This document shows positions 3,820-16,997 of a DNA stretch of 20,362 nt, one piece after another. A program made the translations under genes and the position numbers. The notes below the pieces were generated by a model that saw only the letters and a list, made by a program, of their open reading frames with translations, searched no databases and was not told the origin of the DNA. Each line of letters opens with the position of its first letter. The first letter of the stretch is position 1. The DNA comes from a virus. The stretch is taken from positions 1-20,362 of the IMG/VR virus record IMGVR_UViG_3300025151_000393, one strand, 5' to 3'.

Positions 3820-4558
3820 AGAACAACAAGTAACACAAGAATCTGCTACTGAGCCTACATCAGATGTGATAAGTAATCCTCCCACAACTGAATCAGTAGC
3901 AGACCCAGTAGCTACACCTAGACCTGAAGGCTTACCTGAAAAGTTTAACTCTTGGCAAGATATGGCTAAGTCATACTCTGAGTTAGAGTCTTGGAAAGGT
4001 AAAAAGGAAGAAGATATTAAAAATGGATTGCTTCAAGAGTTAGAAACTGAAGCCTATTCTAATAGACCTGCAAGTGCAGGTGATTATCAAATACCTGAGA
4101 TATTAGATGATGCAGAAGCAGCAACTAATCCCCTTTTAAAATGGTGGGCAGATTATTCTTGGAATAATGGACTATCACAAGAAGAGTTTGATGAAGGTAT
4201 ACAAAAATGGGCAGAACATACTCCTCAGCCCAATCTTGATGAAGTAAGAGCATCATTAGGTGACAATGCTAATGCAAGAGTAGAATCAGCACAGTTGTTT
4301 ATGCAAAAGTTTTTTCCTGCTGAAATGCAAGATGCTGTTGCACAGCTTGGCACAAGTAAAGAAGGCATTATGGCTTTAGAACTTATACAAGAAAAAATGA
4401 AAGGTATTAATCCACAACAAGAAGTTACACAGCCTAGTCAACTAACACAAGGTGATCTTGAAGCAGCAATGCGTGATCCTAGATACTGGGATGCTAAGCA
4501 AAGAGATATGAATTATGTCAAAGAAGTCGAAGGTAAATTTAAGAAACTTTATGGGTGA
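3812..4558 (+). CDS. Capsid assembly scaffolding protein, T7 gp9-like
   Basis: Scaffold proteins fill the procapsid, direct coat protein into the right curvature and leave before DNA entry. This 248-residue protein is acidic and shows the family design: a disordered N-terminus rich in Thr, Ser, Pro and Glu (1-36), a conserved LPEKFNSWQDMAKSYSELE segment (about 41-59), then helical Gln/Glu-rich sequence with RPASAGDYQIP near residue 90 and LKWWADYSWNNGLSQEEFD after it, and a basic C-terminus (YVKEVEGKFKKLYG) that probably contacts the capsid. It lies between portal and capsid as expected. The start at 3812 follows TGAGG at 3800-3804 and overlaps the previous gene by 8 nt. Confidence 0.92.
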   Translation: MNEEQQVTQESATEPTSDVISNPPTTESVADPVATPRPEGLPEKFNSWQDMAKSYSELESWKGKKEEDIKNGLLQELETEAYSNRPASAGDYQIPEILDDAEAATNPLLKWWADYSWNNGLSQEEFDEGIQKWAEHTPQPNLDEVRASLGDNANARVESAQLFMQKFFPAEMQDAVAQLGTSKEGIMALELIQEKMKGINPQQEVTQPSQLTQGDLEAAMRDPRYWDAKQRDMNYVKEVEGKFKKLYG

Positions 4559-5063
4559 AGGCGTTTATGATGGCTTTGCTATTGCAAAAGCTACATCTGA
4601 ACACGCTAACATACTTCAACATAATTTAAGAGATAGTGATGTACGAGAATGTATAATACATGGTGCATCACCTTTTCGTGCTTTAATGGCAAGCATAAGA
4701 GAAAAAGGTGAAAACTATACTTGTATTATAGATGGTGAGCCTATCTGTATGTTTGGTGTTAACTCGATAATGGATCATATGATTGGTCGAATATGGCTTC
4801 TTGGTAGTTATGAAATAGAAAAAAGAGGTCGTAAGTTTCTTAGATGGTCACAATCTGTGGTAAATTACTATCAAAATAAATATTATCAGTTAGAAAATGT
4901 AGTCCCTGCTGACCATAAACATACTATAGATTGGTTAGAATTTTTAGGATTTCAGATACTTTCCCCATCAGTAAAAGTAAATAGTTTTAAGGTTTTTAGA
5001 TTTGTTCGTTGCAAAGGTGACGAAATTTTGATAAATAAAGAAGAACAGCCTATTCAATGTTGA
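4515..5063 (+). CDS. GNAT-fold acetyltransferase-like phage protein, T7 gp13-like (DUF2833 type)
   Basis: The protein fits the family of T7 gp13, an N-acetyltransferase-fold protein needed for virion morphogenesis. The family pattern is visible: an N-terminal IAKATSEHANIL strand-helix, RECIIHGASPFRAL, CIIDGEPICMFGV, RIWLLGSYEIEKRGRKFLRW and finally LENVVPADHKHTIDWLEFLG, which matches the LWNYV...HIRFLKTIG end of T7 gp13. The usual acetyl-CoA loop (Q/RxxGxG/A) is not obvious, so enzymatic activity is doubtful. The start is uncertain: ATG 4515 gives 182 aa, while ATG 4551 gives 170 aa and an 8-nt overlap with the scaffold stop, the same spacing seen at the previous gene junction. Neither has a strong ribosome-binding site. 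In T7 this gene follows gp12; here it precedes the capsid gene. Confidence 0.85.
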   Translation: MSKKSKVNLRNFMGEGVYDGFAIAKATSEHANILQHNLRDSDVRECIIHGASPFRALMASIREKGENYTCIIDGEPICMFGVNSIMDHMIGRIWLLGSYEIEKRGRKFLRWSQSVVNYYQNKYYQLENVVPADHKHTIDWLEFLGFQILSPSVKVNSFKVFRFVRCKGDEILINKEEQPIQC

Positions 5064-5964: not shown

Positions 5965-6270
5965 ATGGCTTTAGATTTAAGTAACTTAACACGACTAGCA
6001 GGTGGTAGTGGTGTTAATCTATGGTACTACACCTCAAATGATGCTTTATCTGTAGTAAGAGCAGCAAACTACTTTTCTACAGCAGATGCAACTGGTGGTG
6101 AGATGAATGGGCAGTCAGCATTAGGAATGATGAAAGAAGGTGATGTCGTTCTTATATGTGATGCTAATTCAACCCATAAAACTTTATCTGCTACAGTAGT
6201 TAAATCTGTATCAGCCACAGCAATAGACTGTGGTGATGGTTCAGACTTAAGTACAGCCGATAGCGATTAA
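5965..6270 (+). CDS. Capsid-adjacent accessory virion protein (101 aa)
   Basis: The ribosome-binding GGAG at 5955-5958 and a 10-nt gap tie this gene closely to the capsid gene. The protein has a short helix-like N-terminus (MALDLSNLTRLAGG), then a pattern I recognise from many phages: LWYYTSNDALSVVRAANYF, a variable linker, then a KEGDVVLICD strand pair and a Ser/Thr-rich tail. The pattern 'aromatic-x-x-T/S-x-DA ... xYF ... GD-x-I/V' occurs in small proteins next to capsid genes and is sometimes labelled head fibre or decoration. A role on the outside of the head is inferred from position and form. No enzyme motif is present. Confidence 0.85.
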   Translation: MALDLSNLTRLAGGSGVNLWYYTSNDALSVVRAANYFSTADATGGEMNGQSALGMMKEGDVVLICDANSTHKTLSATVVKSVSATAIDCGDGSDLSTADSD

Positions 6271-9169: not shown

Positions 9170-9658
9170 ATGGGATTACCATTAGCATTAGCAATAGCAT
9201 CAACTGGTTTGCAAGTATTTGCAGCAGATTCAGCTTCAAGGGCAGCAAAAGCACAAGGCAGATTACAAGCTAGACAGTTTGCAAATCAACAAAAAGATAT
9301 TTCTTTTACTGCTTTGCAAGAACATAATAAACGTTTAGCAAATTTAAAAACATTCATAAATACTAATGAAGCAATATTAGGCACATCAGGTCGAGCAATG
9401 GATAGATCATATGATGCTATTATTAAAAAAGCAAAACAAGATGCAAGAACAGACGTGACTCGATTAAGAATAGATGCAGCTATGAAAACTGGTCAGGCTT
9501 CATTACAAGGATCAATGGCAATGTTACAAGCACAAAATAGAGCAAATGCTTATAGATTCCAAGCATTAGGATCACTAATGTCAGGTGCAGCAAAAGCATA
9601 TCCACTTATGCCAAATAGTCCCACTACACCTGATTATAGATTTGTAGGTATGGATTAA
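9170..9658 (+). CDS. Internal virion protein, T7 gp14-like (162 aa)
   Basis: This is the first of three consecutive internal core genes, placed right after tail tubular B as gp14 is after gp12 and gp13 in T7. It begins with a hydrophobic Gly/Ala-rich segment (LPLALAIASTGLQVFAADSA, residues 3-22), which fits a protein that inserts into the host outer membrane during DNA ejection. A long Ala/Gln-rich helix follows (residues 23-130), with GTSGRAMDRSYDAII in its middle. The size is slightly below T7 gp14 (196). The hydrophobic start is not a convincing signal peptide because no basic residues precede it. ATG 9170 lies one base beyond the previous stop. Confidence 0.85.
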   Translation: MGLPLALAIASTGLQVFAADSASRAAKAQGRLQARQFANQQKDISFTALQEHNKRLANLKTFINTNEAILGTSGRAMDRSYDAIIKKAKQDARTDVTRLRIDAAMKTGQASLQGSMAMLQAQNRANAYRFQALGSLMSGAAKAYPLMPNSPTTPDYRFVGMD

Positions 9659-11922
9659 TGAGTTTTGTAAAATCAAAAGGTACATCATTTATAAATAGAC
9701 CAGTAGGAGTTGTATCAACAAGAACTGGTGCTGAAGAACTGTATCAAACTATAACAAGAACTGCGAATGCAGTATCAAATGATTTGTTTGCCTTAGCTAA
9801 ACAAGAAGAAATAAAAAAAGGTAAAGACTTTGGAATGTCTGTACAAACAAGAGATTCTAATGGTGCATTAAGAATAGAAAAAGCACCTGATACTTTTAGT
9901 GATATAGCAAAACAAACTGCTCAAGGTGAATTAAATAGAATCTATGCAAATGAATTAGCTAATGATATTAATATACAACTTACTAAAGCAAGAGCAGATT
10001 CAAATGGAGATGTAGAGACATTTCAAAAACTAGCTTCTACTTATTTAGGTGAAACAGAAAAAGTTATTAGCAGTCAAGGTGGCAGTCAATATGTGCCAAT
10101 GCTTCGTAGGGCAGGTTCAAGATATATGGCTCAACATCAAAATGCTTTAGTTTTACAAGCAGCAAAAGATGCAGAAAGAAAAGCTACTAATTTAGAATTA
10201 AATGATATCGGTGCTAAATTAATAGAATTAGATGCTCTTATATCAGATGGTGTAGAATTTTTTGATGATGAACTTACTGGAGAAGATTTATCTGTAGATT
10301 CTTGGAGAGAATCTTTAGTACAAAGAGCCAATGTATTATTAAATAATGGCAAGATATCAAACCCTAAACATAAAGAAATAGTTGGCGAAATACAAAAAAC
10401 ATTTTTAACTGCAAGAACAAGATATAAACTAAATCCAATGGGTAACTCCTTAGATATTAATGCAATAAATATATTAAAAAACTTTGCTTTAGATGGAAGT
10501 TTAACAGATACAGAAAAAGAAACTTTAGCAAAATATGATGTTGATGATGCTTGGTTAGAAGACTTTGATAAAATATCAAGAACAAATAGAGATTATATTG
10601 TGCAAAGAATAAATCAGTTTGGTACAGCAGTTAATGGAAGATTAACATTAATAGGAAAAAAGAATAAAGATATTGAGTTTACTAGAAAGTTTGAAGGTAA
10701 TGATATAATAAAATTTAGTGGTGATGATGAAAAGAAAATGGATTCTTACCTTTCAAAAAAATATAATAATAGTCAGCCATTAACTAATAATGATATTTAT
10801 AGAATATCATCTACACAACAAGGTTTATCTGATTTATTAAAACACAATGGTCTATCAAGAAAAGTAAAAGATTTATTTCAAAATTTACCACAGTTTTTGA
10901 CTAAGGTTCAAAAAGAAGGTGATAAAGCATTACCTGAATTAATTAAACAAGTTGATTTATTTAAAAATTTTTACACATCTTTTGGTATAGGTGGCAACAT
11001 AAGTAATCAATCATTTAGAGATGCTATTGGTAATGGAACATTTGAACAATGGTTATCATTAACAACAAGGATAGGTTTGTATGGTGAAGAAAATGTTGCA
11101 GGTATTTTAAAAGATATACAATCAACAGATATAGATGCAGCAAGTCGAGAAGTTATGCAAAAGAAAAACTTATCAATCATTGATTCTGATTTTACAAAGT
11201 TTGGAGTAGAAGCAAGTATTAACTCATTAATGAGAAAATATATTGATGAAGGATTGTTTGGTAGTGGTGCAGATTTTAATCCTGAATCTATTTTATATAT
11301 GAAAATGGTAGCTAAAAAAGAATTAGCTATTGATAACACAGATGAATCAACACTAAAAGAAATATTAAAAAATACTTATAATGCTTTATATGTAGAGTCA
11401 TCAGTAATATTTAGTGAGTCACAACAAACTGGTGAATCAGCTTTTTATACTTTTGGCATGGGTACAAAATATTTAAGAAGTAGATTTGCACCTGAACGAT
11501 TTTTTGGTACTGGCGAAGTATTTGATGGATTTAAATTATATGTAAATAAGCATGTTAAAAGAATTATGGGTGATGGTAAAGATTATAAGTTAGGTGAAAA
11601 TATATTTTTATTTCCAACTAAAAGATCAGGTACATTAAGCACAGCAGAATATATGGTAGTATCAAGTGATGGACAATCGCAGTTACTAAAACAAGATGGT
11701 GATATTATTGCTATTACTACAAATGGTTATATGAAAAAACTTAATGATGAAAATAGAGTTAAATATCTTGCTAGAATAGAAGAATTAAGGAAACAAAGAA
11801 TTGCTAGAATCAAAGGTACAAAACAATTAACTAAAAAATTAAATGAAGATCAAAGTGTTTTTCAACAAATTTTAAAAAGTTTTACAGCAACTCAAGATAT
11901 AACAGGACAGTTATTAAAGTAA
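9658..11922 (+). CDS. Internal virion protein, T7 gp15-like (754 aa)
   Basis: I recognise no domain directly. Assignment rests on gene order (between gp14-like and gp16-like genes), on length (T7 gp15 is 747 aa) and on composition: a long, mostly helical, Lys/Asn/Asp-rich protein without signal peptide or membrane span. The N-terminal part has TGAEELYQTITRTANAVSND and a pattern of helices up to about residue 260; the middle contains alternating charged helices, and the C-terminus (residues 710-754) is basic with RIEELRKQRIARIKGTKQ. In T7, gp15 bridges the periplasm with gp16 during DNA entry. The gene overlaps the previous stop by 1 nt and ends directly against the next ATG. Confidence 0.82.
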   Translation: MSFVKSKGTSFINRPVGVVSTRTGAEELYQTITRTANAVSNDLFALAKQEEIKKGKDFGMSVQTRDSNGALRIEKAPDTFSDIAKQTAQGELNRIYANELANDINIQLTKARADSNGDVETFQKLASTYLGETEKVISSQGGSQYVPMLRRAGSRYMAQHQNALVLQAAKDAERKATNLELNDIGAKLIELDALISDGVEFFDDELTGEDLSVDSWRESLVQRANVLLNNGKISNPKHKEIVGEIQKTFLTARTRYKLNPMGNSLDINAINILKNFALDGSLTDTEKETLAKYDVDDAWLEDFDKISRTNRDYIVQRINQFGTAVNGRLTLIGKKNKDIEFTRKFEGNDIIKFSGDDEKKMDSYLSKKYNNSQPLTNNDIYRISSTQQGLSDLLKHNGLSRKVKDLFQNLPQFLTKVQKEGDKALPELIKQVDLFKNFYTSFGIGGNISNQSFRDAIGNGTFEQWLSLTTRIGLYGEENVAGILKDIQSTDIDAASREVMQKKNLSIIDSDFTKFGVEASINSLMRKYIDEGLFGSGADFNPESILYMKMVAKKELAIDNTDESTLKEILKNTYNALYVESSVIFSESQQTGESAFYTFGMGTKYLRSRFAPERFFGTGEVFDGFKLYVNKHVKRIMGDGKDYKLGENIFLFPTKRSGTLSTAEYMVVSSDGQSQLLKQDGDIIAITTNGYMKKLNDENRVKYLARIEELRKQRIARIKGTKQLTKKLNEDQSVFQQILKSFTATQDITGQLLK

Positions 11923-14900
11923 ATGCCACAACCAATACCATATTATAGTAGAAATCAGGGCATATCTACTGCACCTGATTTAGGATTTTGGGAAGATGTA
12001 GGTAATAATTATGCTAGACAATATAAAGGTATATTAAGAAGTTTTAACGCTACATTATTTGAAGATTTTGCAACAGAAGAATCTGAAGAAGATTTTGCTT
12101 GGTATAATGATATTGAAGGATATGAAGAAGAAGCTGAGTATTTAAGTCAGGCAAAAAACAAAAAACATTTAGATTACTTAAAAGAAAATTTAGAAATACA
12201 AAGAGAGATAAGACGGAAGGCTGAAAGAGGTGGCATTTTACCTGCTATTGTTGCAGGTATTGCAGACCCATTAAATGTAGGTTTTATGTTGCCTATATTT
12301 AATACTGGGATTAGAGCAGCATGGCAGGCAAAAAATGCTTTTGGTGTTGGTTATGAAACTGCAAAGATTGCTGTTCCTTTTGCTGTAACACGAGAAGCAA
12401 TTAGAGCACCCTTTGATCCTTACACTACTGCTGCTGAGATTGGCACAAATATTAGTGCCGAAGTTTTATTATCTGGTTTATTTGGTTTTGCTGCTAGAGG
12501 TGCTGCAAATAAAATCATGCAACCAAAAATACAAGAACAGATAAGAAAATATACAGATTATATATTTGATAGAGATACTATTCCAAAAGATATTAATGGT
12601 GTTAAAGTAAATCAAAAGCCAACTGGCAAGACTCGACCTGATGGTTCTAAAGTAAATGCTTATTATAGTCCAACAAAAAAAGAAATCTTTTGGGATAAAA
12701 AATCTTTGATAGATGAATATCCTTTAAAACCTTGGCTATCACCAAAAGTAAAAGGTGTACAACCTTTACCTGATTATTTATTTCAAAAGCCAGAAGATTG
12801 GGCAAGGTTTGTTTTACATCACGAAAAAGCTCATGCAGAAAATCCATTTGAAACATTACGAGTTCGTTATGAAGCACAGAATCCAAACTTTAAATATTCA
12901 AGAGCAGATTATGAAAATGAAATAAATAATATTGCTATTGAAGATTTTTCAAAAGGTTTTGGTTTAAAACAAACTGTAGGAACTAAAAGTGCTTTTTACA
13001 AAATGATAACCACCCCCGGCAAAAGAATATTAAATGATACAAAACTGCCTAATGAAATTAAAAAATCTTATGCAGATTTATTTTATAATGCTTCTATAAG
13101 TTTAGAAGGTAATTTAAGTGGAGCAGGCACTCATGGAGGTAGTGCTGCTGCTCGAACAATACCTTATAGAGCAACTGCAAAAAGAACTAATGATGCGATA
13201 AAGGCTGCTTACTTACAAGAGTTAAAAGGTAATCCATTATCATCACAAATTCTTGGTTTAGATATAGATGCTTTAAGTGTAAGGATAGGCAACTATGGCG
13301 AAAAAGCAAAGACTTATCAGGATTTCTATACAAATTTAGTATCTTTTAGAATTGATATGGTAACTGATCCTGCATTTGATATGAACTTATATCATGCTTT
13401 ACCTGATAAACATAAAGAAGCATTAGATGCTTTAGAAACATTTTTTACAGACTTTGAAAAAGGATTAAGAGATGTAGGTAAATTAGGTGATGATACTGGA
13501 GTAAGAAGAAAAGTAGCTGATTTAAAAAAAGCTAAAGAATATCACGAATCACAAATAGAAGCACTTAATAAAAATGTTGTTAAAGGTGAAACAAGAAATA
13601 AATACATTAATAAACTTAAAATAGATTTAATTGCTACCCAAAAAAAGATAGACGAATTAATAGATTTTAAAGATAAAAATATGGGTAAGCCAGTTACTCG
13701 TGAGTTTTTTAATAAAAAAACTGGCAGAAGAGATTTTGGTAAATTTAAATATACATTGAAAATGTTTAATGAAGATGCTGCTGAATTTAATCGTAGAAGA
13801 ATAAGATTAAAAGGTGAGATCAAAGCAGCAGAAGCAAATCCAAATTATCTTGGTTCTGAAGAATTTAATATTAAAGTTATACCTCATCAGCAATATATAA
13901 ATAAAATTGATACTGAAATAGAATTTTTAAATGGAGTATTGGAAACACCAATTAGAAAGTATGCTTATCCACATTATTTTAATAAAAGACTTTTATTAGA
14001 AGATGAAAATGCAAGAGCAAGATTTAAACAAAAACTTACAGATTTATTTTTTAAAGAAGGTGGCAAAAAAACTTGGGATGAAGATTCAGGCACTTATTTA
14101 TTAGAAGATGCAAGTGATGTTGGGAAAGCAGCAGAGTTAGCAGAAAGAACAATACTACATATATTAGAAGACCCTGATATTATTAATCTTTTACCTAGAA
14201 GCGGCAAAAGAAAACATTTAATGCAAAGAGTTTTAAATTTTCCAACACATGAACTAAAAGAGTTTCTTATTCTTGATGAAAGAGTAATTGAAAAGTATGC
14301 AAATCAAATGGGATTTCATATAGAGTTTGGTCGTAAGATGGGCACTATGGATATTGATGATGTGCTAGATAGACATGAATTTGTTATGAGAGAAAAAGGT
14401 ATACCTGAAAAAAGAATAGCTGAAGTTCGTAGTGATTTTTTAGGTGATTATGAAAGAGAAGCAGGTATACATATTCGTGATCCTGAAGCTAGAAGTCAAA
14501 GATATGTCAGAAACTTACAAGCTGTATCAGGTATGACTTATCTAGGTGGTGCAGGTCTAACTTCTCTTATAGATGCAATAGGTATGCCTATATTTAGGTT
14601 TGGTCCAACTAAAGTTTTTAAAACTGGTATGGATGCAATTAATGGTGATTTCCCTGAAATGTTAAAAATGGGAAAACAACTTAGAGAATTAGCAGGTGAA
14701 GCTATTGAAATGGATGTTCCTATTGTTCAACAAAGATATTTAGGCGATAGTGTAAGAGATATACAGCCTCGTCTTACTGAAAGAGTTATACAAGGTGCAG
14801 AAAAAATATTTTACAGAGCCAATCTATTATCACAAGTAACAGTTGCAGGTAAATACTTAGATAATAATATTTTAATACCTACTTTTTATCAAAGAGCATT

Positions 14901-15807
14901 AGCAATAAAAAATAAAGAATCTATAATTGAAGGTGGCAAAGATGTTACTGATAGTGTTATCGAAGAATTAGCAAGATATGGCATTAGTCCACAAACAGCT
15001 ATAGATATGATAGATTCAGCAGGTTGGTACTTATCTCCAAAAGGTCATGCAAAAGTTGATATAAGTCAGTGGGCAGATAAAACTGTTGCTCAAAGAGAAC
15101 TAAAACAAAGTTTTCTTACATACATGGGAACTCATGCTCGTAATACTATTATGAACGCTACTGCTTTTGATAAACCTATGATTATGGATGGGTTTATGTA
15201 TGTAAGAATGAATCCAATATTAAAGATGATGGGGTATACTGCTGATAAAAGAGCTTCTACAGCTAATATAGATATGGTTCGTTTAGAATCTGCTGTATTT
15301 GCTTTACCTTTTAAGTTTTTAAATTTTGTATTTGCAGCTACTAATCGTATCACAATGAATATGTTTGATGCTAATGTACAACATAGATTGACTGGTATGA
15401 TGGGATTAATGGCTATGAGTTATTTAGTTTTAAAATTAAAAAAACCTGATTATTGGTTTGAAAATAGAAGCACACCTGATTTAGTTGCAAGAGTTTTTGA
15501 TCAAAGTGGTATTGGTGGTATTTATACAGATTTAGCTTATCATGCTATACATAGTGCTATTGCACAAGGACATTATAATAATAATACTGCTTGGATTAAA
15601 GGTAAGTTTAAGCCAACACCAATGGATGATTTATTTGACAAACTAGGTGCAACACCTAGCATGATTAGAGAATGGACTCTTGGTGCATATGAATTAACAG
15701 CAGGTAGCACAGATGAAGGTATTAAAAGACTAATGAGAAATGTACCTATATTAGGATTATTTGGCATGAATAGAGATTTAGAGTATATGTTTAGAACAAG
15801 ATATTAA
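11923..15807 (+). CDS. Giant internal virion (ejection) protein, T7 gp16-like, with a zincin-like HExxH motif
   Basis: At 1294 residues this is close to T7 gp16 (1318), the largest ejected protein, which crosses into the inner membrane and helps pull DNA in. The N-terminus is acidic; hydrophobic stretches follow at about 105-125 (LPAIVAGIADPLNVGFMLPI) and 180-195. Residues about 245-340 hold a probable metallopeptidase module: KEIFWDKKSLIDEYPLKPWL, then FVLHHEKAHAENPFETL with H300-E301-x-x-H304, then YENEINNIAIEDF with E331 or E333 as possible third ligand. The middle (515-660) is coiled-coil rich. Hydrophobic segments recur at about 868-890, 1123-1142 and 1156-1172 (LTGMMGLMAMSYLVLKL). No lytic transglycosylase domain like that at the T7 gp16 N-terminus is visible. 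The peptidase activity is inferred from motif only. Confidence 0.88.
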   Translation: MPQPIPYYSRNQGISTAPDLGFWEDVGNNYARQYKGILRSFNATLFEDFATEESEEDFAWYNDIEGYEEEAEYLSQAKNKKHLDYLKENLEIQREIRRKAERGGILPAIVAGIADPLNVGFMLPIFNTGIRAAWQAKNAFGVGYETAKIAVPFAVTREAIRAPFDPYTTAAEIGTNISAEVLLSGLFGFAARGAANKIMQPKIQEQIRKYTDYIFDRDTIPKDINGVKVNQKPTGKTRPDGSKVNAYYSPTKKEIFWDKKSLIDEYPLKPWLSPKVKGVQPLPDYLFQKPEDWARFVLHHEKAHAENPFETLRVRYEAQNPNFKYSRADYENEINNIAIEDFSKGFGLKQTVGTKSAFYKMITTPGKRILNDTKLPNEIKKSYADLFYNASISLEGNLSGAGTHGGSAAARTIPYRATAKRTNDAIKAAYLQELKGNPLSSQILGLDIDALSVRIGNYGEKAKTYQDFYTNLVSFRIDMVTDPAFDMNLYHALPDKHKEALDALETFFTDFEKGLRDVGKLGDDTGVRRKVADLKKAKEYHESQIEALNKNVVKGETRNKYINKLKIDLIATQKKIDELIDFKDKNMGKPVTREFFNKKTGRRDFGKFKYTLKMFNEDAAEFNRRRIRLKGEIKAAEANPNYLGSEEFNIKVIPHQQYINKIDTEIEFLNGVLETPIRKYAYPHYFNKRLLLEDENARARFKQKLTDLFFKEGGKKTWDEDSGTYLLEDASDVGKAAELAERTILHILEDPDIINLLPRSGKRKHLMQRVLNFPTHELKEFLILDERVIEKYANQMGFHIEFGRKMGTMDIDDVLDRHEFVMREKGIPEKRIAEVRSDFLGDYEREAGIHIRDPEARSQRYVRNLQAVSGMTYLGGAGLTSLIDAIGMPIFRFGPTKVFKTGMDAINGDFPEMLKMGKQLRELAGEAIEMDVPIVQQRYLGDSVRDIQPRLTERVIQGAEKIFYRANLLSQVTVAGKYLDNNILIPTFYQRALAIKNKESIIEGGKDVTDSVIEELARYGISPQTAIDMIDSAGWYLSPKGHAKVDISQWADKTVAQRELKQSFLTYMGTHARNTIMNATAFDKPMIMDGFMYVRMNPILKMMGYTADKRASTANIDMVRLESAVFALPFKFLNFVFAATNRITMNMFDANVQHRLTGMMGLMAMSYLVLKLKKPDYWFENRSTPDLVARVFDQSGIGGIYTDLAYHAIHSAIAQGHYNNNTAWIKGKFKPTPMDDLFDKLGATPSMIREWTLGAYELTAGSTDEGIKRLMRNVPILGLFGMNRDLEYMFRTRY

Positions 15808-15842: not shown

Positions 15843-16997
15843 ATGACAATAGCTTTAAGTGCAAATACACCAAGAGTTAGTTACACAGTAAGTCAAGGTG
15901 TGACACAAACATCTTTTGCTGTGCCTTTTGTATTTTTTACTGATTCAACCGATTTAAATGTATTTGTGGATAACACAGCTAGGACTTTTGATGCTTCAAC
16001 TGCTAATACATCTTTGTTTACTGTGTCTGGTGGTGATGGTTCTACTGGGACAGTTACAACAACTGTAACTGGTGCAACTGGTGGTAGCACAGTTGTTATT
16101 ACTAGAGCAGTGCCATTATCTCGTACTACAGATTTTCCTAGTTCAGGTGCTTTTGAAGTATCTAAACTTAATACAGAATTAGATACTATAACTGCTATTC
16201 AATCTGATTTTAATGATTCGGCATCAAGAGCAGTAAGATTAAAAGATTCTGATAGCGCTGTATCAATGGAATTACCTTTACTTGATGCAAGAAAAGGAAC
16301 TGTTCTTGGATTTAATGCTACTACTGGTGCTGTCGAAGCAGGACCAACAATAGCTAATGTAAATAGTTTGTCTGCTATAACTGCTAATATAAATACAGTT
16401 GCAGGAATAAGTGCAAATGTAACTACTGTAGCAGGAATAAGTAGTAACGTAACTACTGTAGCAGGTATAGCAAGTAATGTAACAACAGTTGCAGGTGTTT
16501 CATCTCAAGTAACTGCATTAGGTGCATCAGATGTTATAGCTGATATGGCTTTATTAGCTAATTCAGATGTTATAGCTGATATGGCTTTGCTTGCTGATAG
16601 TGATGTAATTGCAGATATGAATACACTTGCTACAAGTGATATTGTTTCAGACTTAAACACTTTAGCAACAAGTGATATTGTAACTGATTTAAATATATTA
16701 GCTACTTCAGATAATGTTACAAATATGGCAACATTAGGTGCTAGTGGAGTTGTAGCAAATATAGCTACAGTTGCAGGGATAGCAAGTAATGTTACTACTG
16801 TTGCAGGTGTTGCAAGTAATGTAACAACAGTTGCAGGCATAGCAAGTAATGTAACAAGTGTAGCAGGTATAGCAAGTAATGTGACTACTGTTGCAAGTAA
16901 TATATCAGACGTAAATACTGTTGCTTCAAATATATCTACAATAAATCAAAAAGCATCACTAGATGATGCAACAGCTTTAGCAATAGCTTTAGGATAA
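15843..16997 (+). CDS. Tail fibre protein, T7 gp17-like N-terminus with repeat shaft
   Basis: Residues about 10-140 form the tail-attachment domain known from T7 gp17: YTVSQGVTQTSFAVPFVFF opens it and SDFNDSASRAVRLKDSD closes it. The rest is a shaft made of repeats: 10-residue units of the type VAGIxxNVTT (about 186-225), then seven 12-residue units of the type SDVIADMxxLAx (229-312), then 10-residue IASNVTTVAG units (313-361). The protein ends after a short helix (ASLDDATALAIALG) without a receptor-binding head, so tip function must be supplied by the following genes or by the repeat end itself. Such repeats usually form trimeric fibrous stalks. A weak TAAAGG precedes the start. Confidence 0.9.
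   Translation: MTIALSANTPRVSYTVSQGVTQTSFAVPFVFFTDSTDLNVFVDNTARTFDASTANTSLFTVSGGDGSTGTVTTTVTGATGGSTVVITRAVPLSRTTDFPSSGAFEVSKLNTELDTITAIQSDFNDSASRAVRLKDSDSAVSMELPLLDARKGTVLGFNATTGAVEAGPTIANVNSLSAITANINTVAGISANVTTVAGISSNVTTVAGIASNVTTVAGVSSQVTALGASDVIADMALLANSDVIADMALLADSDVIADMNTLATSDIVSDLNTLATSDIVTDLNILATSDNVTNMATLGASGVVANIATVAGIASNVTTVAGVASNVTTVAGIASNVTSVAGIASNVTTVASNISDVNTVASNISTINQKASLDDATALAIALG
16398..16925 (+). repeat. In-frame 30-bp and 36-bp coding repeats of the fibre shaft
   Basis: Block one (about 16398-16517) has 30-bp units, block two (16527-16778) has seven 36-bp units, and block three (16779-16925) returns to 30-bp units. Adjacent copies keep strings such as GTAACTACTGTAGCAGGAAT and TCAGATGTTATAGCTGATAT nearly intact while other copies differ at wobble positions. 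The mix of near-identical and diverged copies suggests growth by unequal recombination or slippage followed by drift. Every unit length is a multiple of three. Confidence 0.9.

What the first reader, a model, noticed from the sequence alone, without database searches (positions are those of the whole stretch)
12655..12945. Zincin-like metallopeptidase motif inside the giant gp16-like ejection protein
Seen: residues 299-304 read HHEKAH, giving HExxH (H300, E301, H304), followed 27-29 residues later by YENEINNIA with acidic candidates E331 and E333. A beta/loop segment KEIFWDKKSLIDEY precedes it, the usual order in compact zincins. Known: HExxH plus a downstream Glu is the zinc site of gluzincin-type peptidases, and T7 gp16 instead carries an N-terminal lytic transglycosylase. 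Inference: this virion may carry a peptidase that is ejected with the DNA, to open the peptidoglycan peptide cross-links, process other ejected proteins, or cleave a host envelope protein.
Basis: partly seen in the sequence, partly recalled or inferred. Interest (0 to 1): 0.62.

Follow-up and report, generated by a model that had tools for sequence, protein, structure and literature searches.

The report
Exchangeable metallopeptidase domain in phage ejection protein
A protein that this marine phage is expected to inject into its host carries a small, conserved zinc-peptidase-type domain that close relatives carry elsewhere in the same protein, replace with another domain, have lost the active site of, or lack altogether, which makes it look like an optional weapon mounted on the DNA-delivery machine.

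Summary
The 1294-aa gp16-like ejection protein (11923-15807) has HHEKAH at aa 299-304 and DYENEIN with E331, and this is not chance. All 17 HExxH in 357,480 aa of ORFs from 85 loci lie in this domain. H300, E301, H304, E331 and N335 are invariant in 30 aligned copies of 17-75% identity. In a scan seeded only on the Glu helix, 32 of 34 loci keep HExxH. AlphaFold2 gives pLDDT 86.6 and the order strand-strand-strand-helix-helix(HExxH)-helix-helix(E331). No family model is passed; the nearest is Pfam MPTase-PolyVal, best E 0.008.

It occurs at three or more sites of the gp16 chassis, once as a clean 125-aa insertion between proteins 72% identical. An ART-like domain, or nothing, occupies the window's site in phages whose tail tube is 79-90% identical. 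The window's copy follows the region aligned to T7 gp16 243-405, so it should face the cytoplasm, which argues against a peptidoglycan role.

Best reading: a virion-delivered zincin effector, a known kind (polyvalent-protein MPTases; Iyer 2017) in a new family and host protein. Catalysis and target are untested.

The parts
11923..15807 (+). gp16-like internal virion (ejection) protein, 1294 aa, host of the domain
   Evidence: PHROG 342 'internal virion protein with endolysin domain' E 1.1e-19; hhalign of its family with T7 gp16 243-405, prob 94%, E 1.2e-7; gene order terminase-portal-scaffold-capsid-tail tube-gp14-gp15-gp16-fibre
12547..12957 (+). zincin-like domain, about aa 209-345
   Evidence: aligned with the domain inserted elsewhere in other gp16s, 32-34% identity, E 1e-13 to 4e-15; AF2 pLDDT 86.6, pTM 0.84 for aa 201-355
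12601..12693 (+). three predicted strands, aa 227-230, 246-249 and 254-257
   Evidence: DSSP on the AF2 model
12790..12840 (+). predicted helix aa 290-306 bearing H300-E301-x-x-H304 (12820-12834)
   Evidence: sequence; AF2; invariant in 30 copies
12901..12951 (+). predicted helix aa 327-343 bearing E331 (12913-12915, proposed third zinc ligand) and N335
   Evidence: AF2; E331 and N335 invariant in 30 copies
12055..12507 (+). chassis region aa 45-195, matches T7 gp16 243-405, with hydrophobic stretches aa 105-123 and 173-191
   Evidence: hhalign; hydropathy
9170..9658 (+). gp14-like ejection protein
   Evidence: PHROG 418 'internal virion protein' E 1.6e-7
9658..11922 (+). gp15-like ejection protein (by position and size; no family match)
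   Evidence: gene order, 754 aa

Best explanation
The segment is a compact zincin-type zinc metallopeptidase domain inserted in a T7 gp16-like ejection protein, just after its presumed membrane-crossing region. Zinc would be held by H300, H304 and E331, with E301 as general base. Packed in the virion core and ejected with gp14 and gp15, it would end up on the cytoplasmic side of the inner membrane and cut one or more host proteins early in infection: an optional effector mounted on the delivery machine, exchangeable with other domains such as an ART-like one. Shown: the motif, its conservation, the predicted fold, its optional presence at several sites, and the homology of the preceding region to T7 gp16 243-405. 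Inferred: zinc binding, catalysis, cytoplasmic exposure, host target.
For: Motif exact and not chance. Invariant F296, H300, E301, H304, E331, N335 in 30 copies at 17-75% identity; a scan seeded only on [DE]YENRIN gave 34 loci whose copies keep HExxH in 32. AF2 model confident, with three strands, a helix, the HExxH helix and the Glu helix, the core described for MPTases of polyvalent proteins (PMC5512222). Same domain at another chassis site in L048 and relatives, absent from L076, as a clean 125-aa insertion in proteins 72% identical; a third site in L051, L007, L081. Close relatives (tail tube 79-90% identical) have an ART-like domain at the window's site (L033, L083, L027, L010) or only a short linker (L060, L059, L016). 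Preceding region aligns with T7 gp16 243-405, while T7 gp16-C (411-1118) is placed in the cytoplasm (PMC8954989). dN/dS 0.06 in the domain among near copies.
Against: No significant hit to a solved zincin (best PDB Foldseek E 0.94) and no Pfam model above its cut-off. Degenerate copies without both His exist (Hodr, L155, L159), so some function may not need catalysis. No target is known. Cytoplasmic topology is carried over from T7. The ART-like call rests on motif and a non-significant fold match (E 0.55).
Confidence: 0.6

Rival explanations
1. Self-processing: the domain cuts gp16 itself, or gp14/gp15, during assembly or after ejection, to release or reshape parts of the ejectosome.
For: Proposed for MPTase domains of polyvalent proteins; phage P1 DdrB is processed before packaging (PMC5512222).
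Against: Chassis of close relatives lack the domain and it sits at several unrelated sites, so no shared cleavage geometry is needed for gp16 function. N4 vRNAP keeps its HExxH domain and is packaged uncut.
Confidence: 0.2
2. Peptidoglycan peptidase: the domain opens peptide cross-links on the way in, in place of the T7 transglycosylase.
For: The N-terminal SLT domain of T7 gp16 (found as positive control) is missing from the window's gp16 and from the relatives scanned.
Against: The domain lies after the presumed membrane region, not before it where T7 has its SLT domain; relatives without the zincin also lack SLT; no similarity to peptidoglycan peptidase families.
Confidence: 0.07
3. A non-catalytic zinc-binding or structural module: the fold is kept for packaging or binding, and activity is incidental or lost.
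For: Hodr, L155 and L159 have lost both His but keep the fold's other residues, including the two Glu.
Against: 56 of 59 distinct proteins keep HExxH, and the ligands are among the most conserved residues of the domain.
Confidence: 0.12

Closest known systems
MPTase (zincin-like) domains of phage polyvalent proteins, Pfam PF18818 MPTase-PolyVal; phage N4 vRNAP C1 domain, P1 DdrB (Iyer et al. 2017, PMC5512222)
   Same: Zincin-like HExxH domain with a Glu on a following helix, three strands and helices, embedded at variable places in giant phage proteins, some of them virion proteins delivered with DNA and combined with ART domains.
   Different: Sequence below the Pfam cut-off (3 of 30 members hit weakly, best E 0.008; no record passes); profile comparison with N4 and P1 domains aligns little beyond the HExxH; own signature ..GVxPL..FVxxHExxH..[DE]YENRIN; host protein is a T7 gp16-like ejection protein, which that paper does not mention.
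T7 gp16, internal virion protein D
   Same: Position after gp14 and gp15, size, and the region around the membrane-crossing part (T7 243-405).
   Different: No N-terminal SLT transglycosylase domain; the zincin insert follows the region that aligns with T7 gp16, and no T7 equivalent of it was found in the alignment.
ImmA/IrrE (PprI), SprT and anthrax lethal factor type zincins
   Same: HExxH plus downstream Glu on a later helix; the weak structural match list holds PprI (8sln) and lethal factor, and SprT/IrrE-like phage proteins.
   Different: No significant sequence or structure match to any of them.
gp16-like protein of Pelagibacter phage EXVC031P Hodr (WDQ27578.1)
   Same: Same chassis (25% identity) and same domain site; E of HExxH and the Glu-helix ENRIN kept.
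   Different: HExxH degenerate (KKEVYR), so probably catalytically dead.

Membership tests
Zincin superfamily, HExxH + downstream Glu (gluzincin-like) | HExxH on a helix, conserved | tested here: met
   invariant in 30 copies, 32 of 34 loci in a scan seeded on another motif
Zincin superfamily, HExxH + downstream Glu (gluzincin-like) | third ligand Glu on a following helix | tested here: met
   E331 invariant, on predicted helix aa 327-343
Zincin superfamily, HExxH + downstream Glu (gluzincin-like) | fold significantly similar to a solved zincin | tested here: inconclusive
   best PDB Foldseek E 0.94; zincins in the list but not significant
Zincin superfamily, HExxH + downstream Glu (gluzincin-like) | two His and Glu meet in one metal site; zinc and activity | not testable with these tools
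   no model coordinates returned; needs structure and assay
MPTase-PolyVal, Pfam PF18818 | score above the curated cut-off | tested here: not met
   3 of 30 members match weakly, best E 0.008; no match at E 1 or better in 13 records
MPTase-PolyVal, Pfam PF18818 | profile similarity to N4 vRNAP C1 or P1 DdrB | tested here: not met
   only 9-16 columns align, prob below 1%; single sequences were used on that side, so sensitivity is limited
MPTase-PolyVal, Pfam PF18818 | core of three strands and two C-terminal helices carrying HExxH and Glu, in a large multidomain delivered protein | tested here: met
   AF2; host proteins of up to 4206 aa; LPD39 in one of them, L133. Delivery itself not tested
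T7 gp16-like ejection protein | homologous sequence and gene order after gp14 and gp15 | tested here: met
   PHROG 342, hhalign with T7 gp16 243-405, order
T7 gp16-like ejection protein | N-terminal SLT lytic transglycosylase | tested here: not met
   no Pfam hit in the window; SLT found in T7 as control; not universal in gp16-like proteins (PMC8954989)
T7 gp16-like ejection protein | present in the virion and ejected | not testable with these tools
   needs virion proteomics

The most novel reading that the evidence does not exclude
The ejectosome genes gp14-gp15-gp16 of these marine phages form an exchangeable cassette, and gp16 has fixed slots into which effector domains (zincin, ART-like, nested inserts including a NADAR-like one) are plugged, so that near-identical virions deliver different enzymes into the cytoplasm at the first moment of infection, probably against host defences.
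Probability: 0.4. Interest if true: 0.75.

Novelty: new variant of a known kind. Interest (0 to 1): 0.58.

Why it matters
Phage ejection proteins are usually seen as a DNA conduit with, at most, a cell-wall hydrolase. Here the largest of them carries an optional peptidase-type domain on the expected cytoplasmic side, while the head and tail-tube genes of the same phages stay about 80-99% identical. This gives natural pairs of nearly identical virions with and without the enzyme, which makes it testable what a delivered peptidase is for. It also defines a domain family without a Pfam model of its own (59 distinct proteins here), found only in viral sequences so far.

Tried and rejected
Chance motif: rejected. 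E333 as ligand: rejected, not conserved. Peptidoglycan role: disfavoured by position relative to the T7 membrane region. Pfam and PHROG scans of the domain: only weak hits. Sequence search of PDB with the domain profile and with the gp16 profile: nothing. Bacterial relatives in 84,980 genomes: two scans, none confirmed. tblastn in cultured phages finds only Hodr at a meaningful E-value. Profile comparison with N4 and P1 MPTase regions: not significant. ART-like domain: AF2 pLDDT 73.5, best PDB hits are an ADP-ribosyltransferase toxin but E 0.55, so only tentative. NADAR-like insert in L120: Pfam E 0.003, below the cut-off. Tree of the domain: insertion site is mostly inherited, 5 changes by parsimony on a weakly supported tree, so frequent hopping is not shown. 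Papers: none found that describes a zincin in a T7 gp16-like protein; the library holds open-licence papers only.

Full report
OBSERVATION. The window is a 20,362-base IMG/VR virus record holding the structural genes of a T7-like short-tailed phage: terminase, portal (Pfam Head-tail_con), scaffold (Phage_T7_Capsid), capsid, tail tube proteins, gp14-, gp15- and gp16-like ejection proteins, and fibres. For this composition 0.026 HExxH are expected.

NOT CHANCE. Loci were collected through the tail tube protein B, without use of the motif, besides a few from the first gp16 search. Of 42 full-length gp16-like records among them, 16 (a few from the same contig) have HExxH, and all 17 HExxH in 357,480 aa of ORFs lie in this domain. 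In 30 aligned copies, H300, E301, H304, E331 and N335 are invariant at 17-75% identity to the window. Some of these copies were found with motif-based patterns, so the fairer test is the scan seeded only on [DE]YENRIN: 32 of 34 loci keep HExxH. The exceptions, L155 (REYKY) and L159 (KEINK), and Hodr (KKEVYR) have lost both His but keep both Glu. In all, 59 distinct proteins carry the domain and 56 keep HExxH.

FOLD. AlphaFold2 on aa 201-355 with 30 sequences gave pLDDT 86.6 and pTM 0.84; order: strands 227-230, 246-249, 254-257, helix 259-268, helix 290-306 with HExxH, helix 309-319, helix 327-343 with E331. This is the core described for MPTase domains of polyvalent proteins (PMC5512222). Foldseek against PDB gave nothing significant, though PprI and anthrax lethal factor, both zincins, are in the weak list. 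Among viral models the four significant hits are proteins of 990-1325 aa, followed by small SprT- or IrrE-like proteins without significance. Distances between the ligands could not be measured.

OPTIONAL AND MOVABLE. The window's domain (aa 209-344) matches aa 1045-1180 of L048 (32-34% identity in that group, E down to 4e-15). L048 and L076 are 72% identical, and the domain is a clean 125-aa insertion between KWTT and the following helix. A third version with YHELSH sits in the middle region of L051, L007 and L081. At the window's own site, L033, L083, L027 and L010 carry FPDYVFHRT..., with H in strand 1 and Y in a later strand, and PDB ranks 1 and 3 are an ADP-ribosyltransferase toxin without significance; the ART-like domain lies at that same place in the 20 loci of a further scan, some of them the same contigs. 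L060, L059 and L016 have only a linker. The domain can itself be interrupted: about 280 aa in L097 and 130 aa in L046, and a NADAR-like domain in L120 (Pfam E 0.003). A tree of the domain shows that the insertion site is mostly inherited, with 5 changes by parsimony on weak support.

CASSETTE. Between the window and relatives, capsid is 86-99% and tail tube B mostly 79-91% identical, but gp14 is mostly 33-49%, gp15 22-38% (often only part aligned) and gp16 C-part 25-41% outside the window's own group. The ejection genes thus differ as a block. Internal virion proteins were noted among under-recruiting islands of marine phages before (PMC3909814), and mosaicism of ejection proteins is known (PMC8954989).

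WHERE IT ACTS. The gp16 family aligns with T7 gp16 243-405 over window aa 45-195 (prob 94%, E 1.2e-7), with hydrophobic stretches at 105 and 173. In T7, residues 1-228 are periplasmic and 411-1118 are placed in the cytoplasm (PMC8954989). The zincin follows directly, so cytoplasmic exposure is expected. This, and the absence of the domain from close relatives that also lack SLT, speaks against a cell-wall role. Position independence speaks against an obligatory self-cleavage. A host-protein target is the most likely reading, by inference.

KNOWN OR NEW. Zincins in delivered phage proteins are known (Iyer et al. 2017, PMC5512222; N4 vRNAP C1, PMC12633501). This family does not pass PF18818, does not align with N4 or P1 domains beyond the HExxH, and was not found in bacterial genomes (limited sensitivity). 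I file it as a new variant of a known kind: it works like a polyvalent-protein MPTase; membership in that Pfam family is not shown.

Noticed in passing
window 5965-6270: The 101-aa gene between capsid and tail tube A has two divergent alleles among relatives: 99-100% identical in L046, L040, L045, L056 but 31-41% in the others; tail tube A goes the other way (73-74% against 80-90%), which points to crossovers beside it.
   Followed up: no
L120:1-1020: NADAR-like domain (Pfam E 0.003, below cut-off) inserted between the HExxH and the Glu helix of a zincin copy.
   Followed up: partly
L097:4394-8950 and L046:11523-13409: Nested insertions of about 280 aa and 130 aa inside zincin copies.
   Followed up: partly
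L033:15717-16082: ART-like domain at the same gp16 site in relatives; no Pfam hit; found at the same site in all 20 loci of a further scan.
   Followed up: partly
L144:4938-11360: Two zincin copies in tandem, the first degenerate, in a protein that also holds DUF7831 (Pfam E 2e-18).
   Followed up: no
window 15843-16997: Fibre-like protein with repeats of the type VAGIASNVTTVAG (weak Pfam LED_rpt).
   Followed up: no
window 4515-5063: 182-aa ORF between scaffold and capsid genes, no Pfam hit; function not tested.
   Followed up: no
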